Assembly (NCBI GenBank): GCA_003327425.1
Contig: QOQW01000007.1
Location: forward strand, 1-64,000
From: Candidatus Ozemibacter sibiricus
Lineage (GTDB): Bacteria; Muiribacteriota; Ozemobacteria; Ozemobacterales; Ozemobacteraceae
DNA length: 64,000 bases
Direction of reading: 5' to 3'
Under the pieces are notes generated by a model. The model was not told the DNA's origin. It was given only the letters and a program-made list of their open reading frames with translations, and made no database searches. Below are positions 10,874 to 44,621 of the stretch, one piece after another (within the stretch, counting starts at the first letter, position 1; every line of letters starts with the position of its first letter). The translations under genes were made by a program, and so were the position numbers.

Positions 10874-13800
10874 ATGTATTTGAAGTCTCTCGAACTCATG
10901 GGGTTCAAGTCCTTCGGCAAGAAGACCGTCTTCGATTTCCAGCCGGGCATCACCGCCATCATCGGGCCCAACGGGTCGGGCAAGAGCAACGTCTGTGACG
11001 CCATCCGATGGGTGCTCGGCGAGCAGAGCGCCAAGGCGCTGCGCGGCACCAAGATGTCCGAGGTCATCTTCGCCGGAACCCCCCAGCTGCGACCGGCCGC
11101 CTTTTCCCAGGTCAAACTGGTCCTCGACAACCAGGACCACCTCATGCCCATCGATTACAGCGAAGTGGCCATCGGGCGTCAGCTGTTCCGGTCGGGCGAG
11201 AGCCACTACTTCCTCAACAGCTCCAAGGCCCTCCTGTCGGATATCAAAGAAATGCTCATGGATACCGGGATCGGCAAGGAAGGCTACTCGATCATCGGCC
11301 AGGGCGACATCGATGACATCGTCTTCCAGCGCATCCAGAACCGGCGCACCCTCATCGAGGAGGCGGCCGGCATCACCAAGTTCAAGCATCGCAAGCACAG
11401 CACCCTGCAGAAGCTCGAGCACACCCGGGCCAACATCACCCGCTTGCGCGATATCGTCGGCGAGATCGAGCTGCAGCTCGGGCCGCTCGCCGTCCAGGCC
11501 GAGAAGACCCGCCAATACCAGGCCCTGGCCGCCGAGATCCGCACCCTCGAGATCGACCTCGTCCTGTTCGACCTGACCCAGCTCTATGGTGAGCATGAAA
11601 GCGTCGATTCGATGCGGCGCGGCTTGCTGTCGAAGATCGCCGAGATCGAGACCTTCCTCGCCGAGATCGGCTCCAAGAAAGCCGCGGCCCGCGAGCGCCT
11701 GGCCCAGACCGAGTCGACCTTGCGCGAGCACCAGGCTCGACACCGCGAGATCACCGCCACCATCGAAGCCGGTCGCGCGAAAGGGGCCGCCCTCCGCGAG
11801 GAGATCCGCAGCCATGAGGCTCGCTGCCAGGCCATCAACGAGGAGATCGCCGCCATCGAGACCCGTCTCCAGGATGGCGGCCAGGAGATCGCCGACGCCG
11901 AGACCCGGCTGCGCGACGAAGAAGAGGCCGAGCTCGGGATCCACCACCGCCTCGCCGAGATCGAGGCCAACCTGGGCCGGGTCCAGGCCGAACTCGACCA
12001 GCACCTGAAAGAGGTCTCGCAGGATCGCGAATCGTCCTTCCAGATCGCGGTGCAGATGGCCGACAAGAAGAATCGCATCAACACCGCCGTCCAGCAGATG
12101 CAGATGATCACCCGTCAGCTCGAGAAGGGCGCCTCGGATGTGGCCTCGCTCGAAGGCGGGATCGCCACCCTCGTCCGCGACAAGGAGCGCCTGGAAAAGG
12201 AGATCAAGACCCTCGACGCCGAGATCGCCGATGGCGAGAAGCAGCTGGCCGACGACCAGAACCGGCTGCGCACCGTCGAGCGCGATCTGCGCAAAGCCGA
12301 GGAAGAGCTGACGGCAGCGACCGATCAGATCAAGATCGCGCAGGCCCGCCGCTCCATTCTCGAAGAGCTGAAGAACCGGGCCGAGAGCGGCATCGCCCGC
12401 GGGGTGCGCGAAGTGCTCGCCCTGGCCGGCACCGACCTGCCCGGTATCTTCGGCATGGTCGGCGATCTGATCAAAGTGCCGCGCGGTTATGAGATCGCCT
12501 TCGAGACGGCCCTCGGCGCCAGCATCCAGGATGTCATCACCCGCGATGCCGCCACCGCCCAGGCCGCCATCGAGCTGCTCAAGCAGCGCAAGGCCGGGCG
12601 GGCCACCTTCCTGCCCCTCGATCTCATCCAGCCCCCGCCTCGCATCGATCACCCCAAGGTCAAGGGCTGCCTGGGCGTGGCCCTCGATCTCGTCGAGTAC
12701 GATGCCCGATTCTACTCGATCATGAATCACCTGCTCGGCCGCATCCTGATCTTCGACTCCCTCGATGCCGCCGTCGCCTACGCCCGCACCAATCGCAACT
12801 TCAACCGCCTCGTCACCCTCGACGGCGATGTGGTCCGCTCGTCCGGGGCCATGACCGGCGGGGCCGAGGGCGCCAAGACCGGCGGCCTGCTGGCCCGCAA
12901 GCGCGAACTCGAGGAACTCGAAGAGAAGCTGGCCGCCCTGGTCAAGAGCGAAAAACAGCTGGCCGGCCGCCTCCAGAAGCTCGCTCCCGAACGGGCCAAC
13001 CTGCTCGAGAGCATCCGACGCCGCGAGGAGCATCTCGTGCGGCGGAAACAATCGGTCGAGTTCTTCCGCAAGAATCTCGAGAAGCAGGCCGCCGACCTGG
13101 CGGCCCGTCAGTCCGAATTCGCCGGGCTTCAGGCCGATCGGCGCGATCTCGAAACCGAGCTGGCCCGGCTGCAGCAGGTGCAGACCGAGGCCCAGGCCGA
13201 ACTCGCCCGTCTCGAGAGCCAGAACCAGGATCTGACCGCCCGGCTGCAAGCCCTGTCCGGGAAGGAAGCGGGCATCCAGGCCCGCCTCGCCGCCCTGCGC
13301 GGCCTGCAACACGACGAGAAGCTCGCCCTGGCGCAGGTCGGCGAACGCAAGAAAGCCATTCGCAAAGAGATCGAATCGGCCGTCCGGCGCCGGCGCGAGG
13401 CGCAGGAGCGGCGCGAACGGGCGGCCGCCGAGGTGACCCGCCTGCAGGAGGCCATCGCCGAGGTCAACCGCCAGCTCGCCGCCCACCAGGCCACCCTGCA
13501 GGACCTCGAAATCCAGAAGGCCGGGCTCGAGAAGACCATGGAAGACCTGCAGAATCAGTACCATGCCGGTGCGAAGGAGCTGGACACCTTCGATCACACC
13601 TTCCAGAGCCGGTCCAAGATGCTCGATAACACCCGCGCCAAGCTGGGCGAACTCGATGTCAAGCTCGCCGAGATCAAGACCAACATCTCCAACAAAGAAG
13701 GGGTCCTGGCCGGCGAATTCAACTTCGACATCACCGAGGCCCGCACCGCGCTGCGCAAATACGAGAGCCGGGACGAGCTGACCCATCGCCTCGCCGCTCG

Positions 13801-25012: not shown

Positions 25013-25096
25013 GCCGGGATGGCGGAATAGGCAGACGCACCGGACTTAAAATCCGGTGGGGTAACTCCCGTGCCGGTTCAAGCCCGGCTCCCGGCA
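25013..25096 (+). tRNA. tRNA-Leu (UAA)
   Basis: The 84-base class II tRNA has acceptor GCCGGGA/TCCCGGC and discriminator A. The anticodon stem CCGGA/TCCGG holds the loop CTTAAAA (anticodon TAA), and there is a long variable arm (TGGGGTAACTCCCGT) and a GGTTCAAGC T-loop. CCA is not encoded. Confidence 0.96.
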
Positions 25097-25108
25097 CATT
25101 CTCTTCGA

Positions 25109-25182
<74 letters not shown>

Positions 25183-25195
25183 CCGCCTTCCAAAG

Positions 25196-25220: not shown

Positions 25221-25225
25221 CATTT

Positions 25226-25299
25226 GGCAAGGTAGCTCAGTTGGTCAGAGCACACGGTTCATACCCGTGATGTCGAGGGTTCGACTCCCTCCCTTGCTA
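25226..25299 (+). tRNA. tRNA-Met (CAU), elongator type
   Basis: The acceptor GGCAAGG pairs with CCTTGCT (G1-U72 wobble), discriminator A. The D-arm GCTCAGTTGGTCAGAGC, anticodon stem CACGG/CCGTG with loop TTCATAC and T-arm GAGGG/CCCTC are all regular. The body resembles elongator tRNA-Met, but tRNA-Ile2, whose CAU anticodon is converted by TilS, shares this anticodon, and tilS lies downstream. Identity as Met is favoured, not proven. CCA is not encoded. Confidence 0.9.
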
Positions 25300-25429
25300 T
25301 TCCAGACCGCATCAGGCGGTCTCGTTCCTTGTGCAAAACCCGCTGTTCGGCGGGTTTTGTGCCTTTCAGGAGGTCTGATGGCCGCGGCAATCGCCCCGAC
25401 GATGAGGCGCCGGCTCGCCCGATTGGCCC
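25296..25429 (+). repeat. direct repeat, copy 1 (tRNA-Met 3' end to tilS 5' end)
   Basis: These 134 bases match 26137-26270 with nine mismatches and no gaps. The copy begins with the last four bases of tRNA-Met and includes a terminator hairpin, a ribosome site and the first 17 codons of tilS. The two copies flank the toxin-antitoxin pair with a period of 841 bases. Confidence 0.95.
25335..25358 (+). terminator. terminator after tRNA-Met
   Basis: AAAACCCGC (25335-25343) pairs fully with GCGGGTTTT (25350-25358) around TGTTCG, with the T tract forming part of the stem. Confidence 0.75.
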
Positions 25430-25464
25430 TGAAAAGGTCTGTCAGGCCCGAGTTCCCGCCATGA
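25378..25464 (+). pseudogene. truncated duplicate of tilS 5' end
   Basis: An ATG with the same GGAGGTCTG ribosome site as intact tilS begins MAAAIAPTMRRRLARLA. Sequence identity to tilS stops after about 17 codons and an unrelated tail reaches a stop at 25462-25464, giving 28 residues. The ATP-binding loop of TilS is missing, so it is a remnant created by the duplication or insertion that placed the toxin-antitoxin genes here. Confidence 0.8.
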
Positions 25465-25470
25465 TATAGT
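25462..25470 (+). promoter_or_regulatory. extended -10 promoter of the toxin-antitoxin pair
   Basis: TGATATAGT (extended -10, TGnTATAGT) lies 21 bases before the antitoxin ATG; no good -35 box is present. Confidence 0.4.
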
Positions 25471-25491
25471 TGAATGGAGAGGGAGGAAGCT

Positions 25492-25680
25492 ATGTCACCG
25501 ATCAAGCAGCAGGCCATCAAGGCCATCGAAGCCCTGCCGGATGATGCAACACTTGATGACATCATCTACAGCTTATATTTCCGGGCCCATGTCGAGGAGG
25601 GGTTGCGGCAGCTCGACGAGGGGAAAGGCATTCCTTTGGCCGAAGTGAAGCGGCAGGTCAAGGAATGGCTCTCGAAGTAG
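25492..25680 (+). CDS. antitoxin of a ParE-type toxin-antitoxin system
   Basis: ATG 25492 follows GGGAGG at the right spacing, so the longer frame from 25474 is not used. The 62-residue acidic/helical protein contains LPDDATLDDIIYSLYF, then EEGLRQLDEGKGIPLAEVKRQ. This pattern is common in small antitoxins encoded directly upstream of ParE/RelE toxins, where the C-terminus typically wraps the toxin. Its stop overlaps the toxin start by 16 bases, the usual coupling in such modules. Confidence 0.8.
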   Translation: MSPIKQQAIKAIEALPDDATLDDIIYSLYFRAHVEEGLRQLDEGKGIPLAEVKRQVKEWLSK

Positions 25681-25952
25681 TCTGGTCTCCTCGCGCCCTG
25701 TGGGATCTGCGACAAATCCGGGCGTTCATTGCGGCCGATTCCCCCGGAGCAGCGGACGTGTTCTGTCTGCGCTTGGTGGAAATGTCGGAGGAGATCGGCC
25801 GGTTTCCCGAAGCGGGCCGAGTGGTTCCAGAGGTCAACAAGCCTGAGGTCCGGGAACGGATCGTTGGGGCTTACCGGATGGTCTACCGGATCGGAACGGC
25901 GGCCGTGGAAATTGTCGCTATCTCCCATGGGGCGCGGCTTCTCCGAATTTGA
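25665..25952 (+). CDS. parE: ParE/RelE-superfamily toxin
   Basis: The 95-residue protein has the full ParE pattern: VVWSPRALWDLRQI at the N-terminus, DSPGAADVF, FPEAGRVVPE in the middle, ERIVGAYRMVYRI, and the C-terminal AISHGARLLRI. ParE toxins usually poison DNA gyrase and related RelE toxins cut mRNA; the sequence alone does not decide which. The frame starts inside the end of the antitoxin gene. The module is bounded by the two direct repeats. Confidence 0.88.
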   Translation: MALEVVWSPRALWDLRQIRAFIAADSPGAADVFCLRLVEMSEEIGRFPEAGRVVPEVNKPEVRERIVGAYRMVYRIGTAAVEIVAISHGARLLRI

Positions 25953-26136
25953 CCCGCAAAGTGGTTCCAGGATGGCCCTGCCCTCGGTCTGTAGGTTGGC
26001 CTCCCACGACCGTTGCCGAAAATGTGAAAGCCCGTTGTGGAGGTCTCCCGTGATTGCTGGGGGGTATCGGTGTTCCGTGGTTGGATGAAATGTTTGGTTG
26101 CAGCCGAGGCGCGGGGAAAAATGGATCGTCGCCCGA

Positions 26137-26270
26137 GCTATTCCAGGCCGCGCCAGGCGGTCGCGTTCCTTGTGCAAAACCCGCTGCTCGGCGGGTATTG
26201 TGCCTTTCAGGAGGTCTGATGGTCGCGGCAATCGCCCCGACGATGAGGCGCCGGCTCGCCCGGCTGGCCC
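26137..26270 (+). repeat. direct repeat, copy 2 (upstream and 5' end of intact tilS)
   Basis: This is the second copy of the 134-base repeat. It keeps the hairpin AAAACCCGC/GCGGGTATT (26176-26199, one mismatch relative to copy 1) and leads directly into the intact tilS. It begins with GCTATTCCA as copy 1 does, but no tRNA precedes it. Confidence 0.95.
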
Positions 26271-27706
26271 GGGCCCTTCCGGCCAACCGCATCGGCGTGG
26301 CGGTATCGGGGGGCGCCGACTCGGTCGCCCTTCTCCTGCTGCTGGTGCGAGTGGCGGCCGACCATCCCCTCGAACTGGTCGTCTTCCATGTCGATCACGG
26401 GCTGCGCCCCGAGAGCCGGGCCGATGCCCGCTGGGTCGAGCGCCTGGCCAGGCGGCTGGGGGTGCCGTGTGTGAGGCGGCGTCTGCCGAACCCGCCGGGG
26501 GCGTTGGGAGCCCACGGCGGCCTGGAAGCCTGGGCGCGCCGGGAACGGTTGCGGGCGCTGGCCGATCTGGCCCGCCAGGCTGGCGTGGAGTGGGTCGCGC
26601 TCGGGCATCATGCCGACGATCAGGCCGAGACCATCCTCGCCCGGATCCTGCGCGGCACCTCCCTGAGCGGTCTGGGGGGCATGCGGCCGCGGCAGCGCTT
26701 GACCGTGGAAGGACGCCCGCTGCGCTTGTGGCGCCCGCTGCTGACCTGGGCGCGGGCCGATCTGCGCCGGTGGCTGTCAGAACTCGGCCAGGACTGGCGA
26801 GAAGATCGCACCAACCAGCTCCCCTGTTTCGAACGGAATCGACTCCGGAACGAGGTGCTGCCCGTGCTGGAAGCCATCCGGCCGGGGGTGGCGCGCCGTC
26901 TGGTCGCGCTGGGTCAGGATGCCCGGCAGGCGTTGCGGGCGCTGGCCGCCACCACCCGCCAGGATGGGCGCGACCCCGACCGCCATGGCACCATCTTCTC
27001 GCTGGCCGGCCCCCTTCCGCCGTCATTCGTTCTGGCCGAGCAGCTGCGGCGGTGGGTGATCGGTCTGGGCGAGGGGGAGCGCCTGTCACGGGCGCTGCTC
27101 CAGCGGTTGGTCGATCTCGCCCGCTGCCCGCGCACCGGTCGGCGCCTTCCTCTCGGCCACCGGGTGATCGTCCGCACCGCCACCGGCCTGGAAGTGCTCG
27201 CCCCAGCTCCCCCGTCCGAGGCTGGCGGTGTCCTGCGGCATCTGGTCCGCGGGCAGCCGGTCGAGCTGAATGGCTTCCGCTACCACCTGACACGGCGTCG
27301 GCCATCATCGACCTGGGAAGGATGCTGGATTCCTCGCGCGGTGGCCGAGGCCGGCCTGGTGCTGCGCTCGCGGCGGCCGGGCGATCGGTTCCGACCCGCG
27401 GGCGGTGCCGGCAGCAAGAAGCTCAGCCGGTGGCTGATCGATCGGAAAGTACCAGCCCATCAGCGCGATGGGCTGGTGCTGGTGACCACCACCAGCGGCG
27501 ATATTCTCTGGATTCCGGGATGGGGGCGATCGGCGGCGACCCGCGACCATCCCGACGAAGATCATGTGTTCGTGGGGCGCGTCGCGGTGTGCCCGCGTGA
27601 AAGCTCGCCAGAACGAATCGCGAGCCCCGCAGCCGAGGCTCGCGACCCGTTCCCTGCGAGAGCGGAAGCGATCAGAACTCGCGGCCGCTCATCACGTAGG
27701 TCTTGA
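26219..27706 (+). CDS. tilS: tRNA(Ile)-lysidine synthase
   Basis: ATG 26219 follows CAGGAGGTCTG; the open frame further upstream is the repeat. The 495-residue protein has the PP-loop ATP-binding motif SGGADSV near residue 29, the VDHGLRPESRADA stretch, and GHHADDQAETILARILRG, all diagnostic of TilS, plus a C-terminal TilS domain with RRPGDRFRP and KLSRWLIDRKVP. TilS converts C34 of tRNA-Ile(CAU) to lysidine so that it reads AUA. The gene's end overlaps the convergent zincin gene by 35 bases, and the last ~35 residues are a low-complexity tail. Confidence 0.95.
   Translation: MVAAIAPTMRRRLARLARALPANRIGVAVSGGADSVALLLLLVRVAADHPLELVVFHVDHGLRPESRADARWVERLARRLGVPCVRRRLPNPPGALGAHGGLEAWARRERLRALADLARQAGVEWVALGHHADDQAETILARILRGTSLSGLGGMRPRQRLTVEGRPLRLWRPLLTWARADLRRWLSELGQDWREDRTNQLPCFERNRLRNEVLPVLEAIRPGVARRLVALGQDARQALRALAATTRQDGRDPDRHGTIFSLAGPLPPSFVLAEQLRRWVIGLGEGERLSRALLQRLVDLARCPRTGRRLPLGHRVIVRTATGLEVLAPAPPSEAGGVLRHLVRGQPVELNGFRYHLTRRRPSSTWEGCWIPRAVAEAGLVLRSRRPGDRFRPAGGAGSKKLSRWLIDRKVPAHQRDGLVLVTTTSGDILWIPGWGRSAATRDHPDEDHVFVGRVAVCPRESSPERIASPAAEARDPFPARAEAIRTRGRSSRRS
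27618..27645 (-). terminator. hairpin ending the zincin operon, inside the tilS 3' end
   Basis: TCGCGAGCC (27618-27626) pairs perfectly with GGCTCGCGA (27637-27645), loop 10. On the minus strand it lies 27 bases after the stop at 27672 and is followed by TTCGTT. It overlaps the last codons of tilS. Confidence 0.45.
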
Positions 27707-43651: not shown

Positions 43652-44063
43652 CTACCAGGTCAGGCTGACCGTGGCGACGCCCTCGCCAGGCAGGCGCACC
43701 AGCAGTTCGAGCCGCTGCAGCGGCATCCCATCGGCCCGCCAGCACTGGGTGCCGGCGAAGCGGAGGCCGTGCAGGTCGGACCGGGTCGGATCGACCAGCG
43801 GCGGGAGGGGACACGACAGGGCCGGTGCCTCGGCGGCCACCAGGCGCTGGCCGCGAATCTCGAGGGTGATGGGCAGCCCGCGCTGCTCGGCCCGGGACCG
43901 GCAGGCGCCCAGGAAGGCCGCCAGCGTGTCGGCGATGGTGCGCAGGCGGGTGTCGCGGGCGACCTGGCGGAAGAACCCCGCGCCGGTGGCCGACAGGATT
44001 CCGATCACCAGCAGCACGATCAGCAATTCGACCAGGGTGAAGCCCTGGCATGGGGTTGGGCAT
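43652..44063 (-). pseudogene. GspH/FimT-like pseudopilin with a probable one-base frameshift in its leader
   Basis: The frame ending at 43652 encodes QGFTLVELLIVLLVIGIL, a perfect prepilin signal, and a ~105-residue domain with LRTIADTLAAFLGACRSRAEQ. No ATG, GTG or usable TTG lies before the signal; the frame is open upstream through ATT/ATC codons to a stop. An ATG at 44063 is in another frame. Removing one base from the C4 run at 44055-44052 would join it as MPNPCQGFTLVELL. The disruption may be a sequencing error, a real inactivation or phase variation. The downstream codons look intact. If not disrupted, the start is a non-standard codon near 44116. Confidence 0.6.
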
Positions 44064-44105: not shown

Positions 44106-44621
44106 TTACCAGTAATGATGGGCGCTGTCCTTGGAGCCGTCGGGCCCCATCTGGCCGTTCATGCCGATCCAGCGGGGGCCGAGGCGGAGCGCGCAGACCA
44201 CCCCGCGGCCGCCCATGGCGCCGCTGGAGCCGATGATCCACAGGCCGGTGTTGTCGGTGTTGTAGAACCGATAGCTGGAGCCCGGCCAGGTGTAGCCCCA
44301 CCGGTTGGAGGCCTCGGGGCAGATGAACAGCTTGGAGTCCTTGGCGATGTCGTTCAGCTGCAACAGGGCGTTGGAATATTTCCAGCGCATATTGCCCGAC
44401 CGGTCGATCCAGGCGAACCGGTTCTTGCCCGGGTCGAGTTCGAAGTTCTTCGCTTCCCAGAGGGAGATCAGGCTTTCGATGGCCTTCTGGTTGGACAGGC
44501 ACGATTTGGCCCGTGCCACCGCGGCGATGCTCTGATACCGGGGGATGGCGATCACCACCAGGATCCCGATGACCAGAACCACGATCAACAGCTCGACCAG
44601 GGAGAATCCGTTGCGATTCAT
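44106..44621 (-). CDS. type IV prepilin / GspG-like major pseudopilin
   Basis: ATG 44621 follows GGAGGCC. MNRNG then FSLVELLIVVLVIGILVVIAIPRY is the standard major-pilin N-terminus (Glu +5, Pro22), then VARAKSCLSNQKAIESLISLW. The C-terminal half carries SNRWGYTWPG and RFYNTDNTGLW. 171 residues. Its place just after PilC suggests it is the main subunit. Its ribosome site lies within a 12-base palindrome (44621-44632). Confidence 0.85.
   Translation of the reverse strand: MNRNGFSLVELLIVVLVIGILVVIAIPRYQSIAAVARAKSCLSNQKAIESLISLWEAKNFELDPGKNRFAWIDRSGNMRWKYSNALLQLNDIAKDSKLFICPEASNRWGYTWPGSSYRFYNTDNTGLWIIGSSGAMGGRGVVCALRLGPRWIGMNGQMGPDGSKDSAHHYW

What the first reader, a model, noticed from the sequence alone, without database searches (positions are those of the whole stretch)
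25226..26270. Toxin-antitoxin pair between two copies of the tRNA-Met/tilS junction
Bases 25296-25429 and 26137-26270 are 134-bp direct repeats with nine mismatches, each running from the last four bases of tRNA-Met (GCTA) through a hairpin and ribosome site into tilS codon ~17. Between them are a ParE-type toxin, its antitoxin and ~180 bases of unexplained sequence, leaving a 28-codon tilS remnant upstream. This looks like a cassette inserted with duplication of a tRNA-adjacent target, or a tandem duplication into which the cassette moved. No integrase or transposase is present, so the mechanism is unexplained.
Basis: partly seen in the sequence, partly recalled or inferred. Interest (0 to 1): 0.75.

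Follow-up and report, generated by a model that had tools for sequence, protein, structure and literature searches.

The report
Toxin-antitoxin operon inserted with target duplication
In an uncultured Riflebacteria bacterium, a small toxin-antitoxin gene pair has been inserted between a tRNA gene and the gene tilS, leaving the 134 bases at that junction present twice; a sister species still has the empty site, and a third carries the same gene pair at the same place. It looks like a known, recombinase-free way in which 'addictive' genes enter genomes.

Summary
25296-25429 and 26137-26270 are 134-bp direct repeats with nine mismatches, bracketing 707 bp that hold a compact antitoxin/ParE operon (genes overlap by 16 nt, own extended -10 promoter). 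The genome belongs to the Riflebacteria (relatives' names). Three same-genus states were found. The sister G002 (84% DNA identity over the 10 kb upstream) has the empty site tRNA-Met-terminator-tilS. The more distant G001 carries the orthologous operon (98% and 93% aa) in the same tRNA-Met/tilS gap, with no direct repeat. The window's genome has repeat-operon-repeat-tilS. Each 134-bp copy is a complete empty-site junction, so the immediate ancestor was probably empty. The repeats (d about 0.07) are roughly ten times younger than the operon's divergence from G001 (dS 0.58-0.77). Best reading: the operon entered an empty site recently by recombinase-independent recombination that duplicated the target, probably import from a TA-bearing relative. 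This matches the 'insertion with long target duplication' described for restriction-modification systems; a TA example is a modest extension. No integrase, terminal inverted repeats or attC-type features were seen. The mechanism is inferred, not shown.

The parts
25013..25097 (+). tRNA-Leu (TAA), first of the tRNA cluster at the junction
   Evidence: ARAGORN
25109..25184 (+). tRNA-Met (CAT), initiator type by its C1:A72 end
   Evidence: ARAGORN; initiator assignment read from the sequence
25225..25300 (+). tRNA-Met (CAT), elongator type; its last four bases GCTA (25296-25299) begin the repeat
   Evidence: ARAGORN; Rfam tRNA 25226-25299
25296..25429 (+). repeat copy a: tRNA 3' end, two hairpins (the second an intrinsic terminator), ribosome site, tilS codons 1-17
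   Evidence: terminator stem -21.7 kcal/mol, z -5.5
25378..25464 (+). 28-codon tilS 5' remnant plus stop, left by the insertion
   Evidence: sequence
25462..25470 (+). extended -10 promoter element TGnTATAGT of the TA operon, conserved in G001
   Evidence: alignment with G001 (GCCRTGRTATAGT); weak match, about 1% of shuffles as good
25492..25680 (+). antitoxin, 62 aa, three predicted helices, no Pfam/NCBIfam family
25665..25952 (+). ParE-type toxin, 95 aa
   Evidence: PF05016 E 1.4e-15; PDB ParE relatives 6x0a, 5cw7
25953..26136 (+). 184 bp with no match in relatives; right-hand part of the 707-bp insert 25430-26136
26137..26270 (+). repeat copy b: terminator (degraded, T to A opposite the A-tract), ribosome site and start of the intact tilS
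   Evidence: stem -18.0 against -21.7 kcal/mol in copy a
26219..27706 (+). tilS, tRNA(Ile)-lysidine synthase, intact
   Evidence: PF01171 E 2.6e-47, PF11734 E 1.1e-15

Best explanation
A self-contained type II TA operon (promoter, antitoxin, ParE) entered an empty tRNA-Met/tilS junction by insertion with a long (134-bp) target duplication, without a dedicated recombinase. The most likely route is import of DNA from a TA-carrying relative. Either a fragment with the operon and one copy of the junction circularised and integrated by a single RecA crossover in the 134 bp, or a linear fragment joined homologously at the tilS side and illegitimately at the other. Copy b keeps tilS intact with its leader, copy a keeps the tRNA terminator intact, and the operon brings its own promoter, so the insertion does little harm. 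Addiction and strong purifying selection then keep it. Recombination between the repeats would excise it precisely. Shown: the anatomy, the empty site, the orthologous operon in the same gap, and the relative divergences. Inferred: import, the crossover route and addiction.
For: Empty site in sister G002: tRNA-Met, terminator, tilS with no remnant. G007 of another genus shows the same short gap. The operon is present in the same gap in G001, 98% and 93% aa identical, dN 0.007 and 0.042 against about 0.09-0.4 for neighbouring genes. Both 134-bp copies are complete empty-site junctions (terminator + ribosome site + tilS), an arrangement absent from G001's occupied allele, so an empty allele took part in the event. 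Repeat divergence 0.07 against dS 0.58-0.77 for the operon and 0.44-0.85 for ordinary neighbours between G000 and G002 makes the duplication recent. Homology between the G000 and G001 operons is found only from the promoter to the toxin stop. Of four differences that G002 can polarise (my reading of the alignment), three are derived in copy b, two of them in its unneeded hairpin/terminator region, and one in copy a, in its unneeded tilS remnant. No other copies in the genome. ComEC- and DprA-family genes are present, permitting but not proving DNA uptake. [quoted passage not shown] a 1577-bp duplication by one homologous plus one non-homologous junction (PMC4615327); circularised linear DNA integrating by single crossover (PMC3240628).
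Against: No donor carrying [operon-184 bp-junction copy] was found, so import is not shown directly. The operon's synonymous divergence from G001 lies within the range of vertically inherited neighbours, so the operon could be old at this locus. Gene conversion between repeats could make them look young. ComEC and DprA are nearly universal (also in E. coli and B. subtilis controls). One genome per species limits resolution. tilS shows no clean sign of a donor tract.
Confidence: 0.55

Rival explanations
1. Two steps: a short tandem duplication of the tRNA-tilS junction arose first (replication slippage or unequal exchange), and the TA operon later moved into the duplication junction or the tilS remnant.
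For: Gives the same final anatomy. Copy a is a non-essential landing site where an insertion is harmless.
Against: Needs two independent rare events, the second exactly at the end of copy a and start of copy b. No relative with the tandem duplication alone was found (G002 and G007 have single copies).
Confidence: 0.15
2. Old shared insertion: the operon entered the gap once in the genus ancestor with a target duplication. In G001 the useless halves of the two copies decayed; in G002 the repeats recombined and excised it precisely; in G000 the repeats were kept alike by gene conversion.
For: The same operon is in the same gap in G000 and G001 with synonymous divergence close to that of neighbours. 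G001 keeps the terminator at the tRNA side and tilS at the other, as decay would leave it. G002 is exactly the predicted excision product.
Against: The repeats' 7% divergence is about ten times too low for that age unless conversion is invoked. No detectable remnant of the second copy in G001.
Confidence: 0.22
3. Site-specific integration at the 3' end of tRNA-Met by an integrase supplied in trans, or an integron-like cassette.
For: The left edge falls at the tRNA 3' end. Relatives of this ParE in other phyla sit between direct repeats that look like cassette sites (e.g. L059, L077, L078).
Against: The repeat continues 130 bp past the tRNA into tilS and shares only four tRNA bases, so no displaced tRNA end is restored as in integrase islands. 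The repeat is ordinary host sequence, alignable with G002, not an attC-like site. No integrase near and no inverted repeats at the insert ends.
Confidence: 0.04
4. Assembly artefact in a metagenome-assembled or draft genome.
For: The window's genome is a draft of 58 contigs, so the join was not proven by a finished sequence.
Against: The copies differ at nine positions, the contig is 212 kb, and the same operon lies beside tilS in the independently assembled G001.
Confidence: 0.04

Closest known systems
Insertion with long target duplication of restriction-modification systems (Nobusato et al. 2000; Furuta et al. 2010, cited in PMC3874152 and PMC3031569)
   Same: A toxin-antitoxin-like two-gene unit inserted between two direct copies of about 100 bp of host target, empty site in a relative, no recombinase
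   Different: Here the unit is a ParE TA operon, the target is a tRNA/tilS junction in Riflebacteria, and an orthologous operon without repeats lies in the same gap of a relative. The two primary papers were not in the library; compared through papers that cite them.
Homology-facilitated illegitimate recombination / circularised-fragment single crossover (PMC3240628); one-sided duplication in H. pylori ELS37 (PMC4615327)
   Same: Predicts host duplication flanking incoming DNA with one homologous and one non-homologous joint
   Different: Known from laboratory crosses or one strain comparison; no donor was found here
ParDE/RelBE superfamily type II TA (PF05016 toxins; PDB 6x0a, 5cw7)
   Same: Toxin is a clear ParE by profile
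   Different: The antitoxin matches no Pfam or NCBIfam family and is predicted as three helices without the ribbon of ribbon-helix-helix ParD
Integron TA gene cassettes
   Same: TA operon with its own promoter between direct repeats
   Different: The repeats are host junction DNA, not attC; no integrase, no array

Membership tests
Insertion with long target duplication (as for RM systems) | Inserted unit flanked by direct copies, on the order of 100 bp, of host target | tested here: met
   134 bp, 93% identical, host tRNA/tilS junction
Insertion with long target duplication (as for RM systems) | Empty site with a single target copy in a close relative | tested here: met
   G002; G007 in another genus
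Insertion with long target duplication (as for RM systems) | No transposase, integrase or terminal inverted repeats | tested here: met
   707-bp insert holds only the two genes and 184 bp; no inverted repeat pairs the insert ends
Insertion with long target duplication (as for RM systems) | Cargo is a restriction-modification system | tested here: not met
   Cargo is a ParE TA operon; it works like this kind, with a different addictive cargo
ParE toxin family | Match to PF05016 over the full domain | tested here: met
   E 1.4e-15, profile 1-88 of 89, 58 bits against a cut-off of 23
ParE toxin family | Toxicity neutralised by the adjacent antitoxin | not testable with these tools
   Gene pairing and 16-nt overlap conserved from Riflebacteria to Cyanobacteria, activity untested
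Integron gene cassette | attC site with conserved core and an integrase | tested here: not met
   Repeat is coding/terminator host DNA alignable with the G002 empty site; no integrase in the insert
Genomic island at a tRNA gene | Island carries a copy of the tRNA 3' end at its far side, with an integrase | tested here: not met
   Only GCTA of the tRNA is shared; no integrase in the insert

The most novel reading that the evidence does not exclude
The operon repeatedly re-enters the same tRNA-Met/tilS junction in this genus without any recombinase of its own: a minimal mobile addiction unit that spreads by allelic import and can leave precisely by recombination between the duplicated target.
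Probability: 0.12. Interest if true: 0.6.

Novelty: new member of a known kind. Interest (0 to 1): 0.35.

Why it matters
Long target duplication is described mainly for restriction-modification systems, where how it arises is unsettled. A TA operon caught as an empty/occupied/occupied-without-repeat series in one genus supports the view that any addictive gene pair can be fixed this way, and it makes the age of the duplication against that of the cargo measurable. The antitoxin also represents a widespread ParE partner with no curated family in the two libraries searched.

Tried and rejected
Repeat or cassette elsewhere in the genome: none. Cassette DNA in 24 genomes: only G001 besides its own. 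The 184-bp tail and 50-bp head against G001 and G002 flanks: only the promoter box aligns, weakly. A decayed second copy in G001: none detected. An imported tilS tract by codon divergence: tilS dS to G002 is raised (1.11 against 0.44-0.85 for neighbours) but dN follows the species relationship, so inconclusive. Viral contigs carrying this ParE: none confirmed; plasmids: only distant (under 60%) relatives. A shared cargo gene explaining G001's larger gap: its 150-aa extra gene is unique to G001. Antitoxin fold match in PDB: none. Padloc: none.

Full report
Observation. The direct repeat is real and as described: 25296-25429 and 26137-26270, 134 bp, nine mismatches. It is the only such repeat in the window, and the same filter found only one other pair in about 1.4 Mb of the same genome, a 1.57-kb duplication. 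Between the copies lie 707 bp: 62 bp with an extended -10 box, the antitoxin (25492-25680), ParE (25665-25952, overlapping by 16 nt; PF05016 E 1.4e-15) and 184 bp without relatives.

Where it is. The window lies in a 5.68-Mb, 58-contig genome. G001, of the same genus, is JAAYVD010000109.1, a Candidatus Riflebacteria MAG, so the window is from the Riflebacteria.

Three states of one junction. G002, the sister by protein identity (84-91% for most neighbouring genes against 67-85% for G001), has tRNA-Leu, tRNA-Met, tRNA-Met, terminator, tilS and no operon. No match to either gene is found anywhere in G002. G007 of another genus has the same compact gap, so the empty site is likely ancestral. G001 has the three tRNAs, a terminator, about 1.2 kb with a 150-aa gene unique to G001, then the operon and tilS, with no direct repeat. 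G000 has tRNAs, copy a, operon, 184 bp, copy b, tilS.

Ages. The G000 and G001 operons are 87% identical in DNA, 98% and 93% in protein. dN is 0.007 and 0.042 while neighbours have about 0.09-0.4, so the operon is under strong purifying selection. dS is 0.77 and 0.58, at the low side of neighbours (0.43-1.24). The two repeat copies differ by d = 0.07. Unless gene conversion has acted, the duplication is far younger than the operon's presence in the genus. Moreover each copy is a complete empty-site junction, which an occupied allele of the G001 kind does not contain. An empty allele must therefore have taken part in the event. This is my inference from the anatomy.

Decay pattern. Using G002 to polarise (by eye on the alignment), copy b has changes that weaken its terminator (stem -18.0 against -21.7 kcal/mol), which no tRNA now needs, and copy a has a change in its useless tilS remnant. 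This fits divergence after duplication, but only four sites are informative.

Mechanism. Import of an operon-bearing fragment followed by a single crossover after circularisation, or one homologous and one illegitimate end, gives exactly this anatomy. Both routes are documented in other bacteria (PMC3240628; PMC4615327). Long target duplications of about 100 bp are described for RM systems (PMC3874152; PMC3031569). ComEC and DprA family genes are present but are not specific. The insertion leaves tRNA termination and tilS intact, which explains why it is tolerated beside a gene that is essential in most bacteria (established knowledge of TilS).

TA family. ParE with this small antitoxin occurs across Cyanobacteria, Desulfobacterota, Spirochaetes, Verrucomicrobia and others, with the same gene overlap in many. 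The antitoxin has no Pfam or NCBIfam match and is predicted as three helices at pLDDT 91, with no PDB fold match.

Verdict. The finding is real and the insertion reading holds, with an empty site and an occupied relative. It belongs to a known kind of event with a different addictive cargo. Interest is moderate. The mechanism remains inferred because no donor allele and no within-species variation could be sampled.

Noticed in passing
25492-25680 and homologues (alignment A3): A small antitoxin family paired with ParE in many phyla has no Pfam or NCBIfam model; predicted three-helix fold, no ribbon-helix-helix strand, only weak RelB/ParD model hits in four of 21 members.
   Followed up: partly
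L059:468-1249, L077:3374-4572, L078 throughout, L047:1310-2236, L075:3490-4489: Relatives of this ParE in other phyla also lie between direct repeats of 120-270 bp; in L078 the repeat occurs at least seven times, like a gene-cassette array, and L059 has an attC-like GTTGGGC end.
   Followed up: partly
L050 (G001 C5) 11196-11648: A 150-aa predicted exported protein unique to G001 sits in the same tRNA-Met/tilS gap, so the gap may be an accessory-gene hotspot.
   Followed up: partly
26219-27706: tilS and the next gene diverge much faster than other neighbours between these species (tilS 57% aa to G001, 72% to G002).
   Followed up: no
L143:2738-6942: A 1.57-kb direct duplication (78%), the only other close direct repeat found in the part of the genome scanned.
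   Followed up: no
window 43994-44049 and 44559-44614: A 56-bp, 80% direct repeat 565 bp apart, not examined.
   Followed up: no
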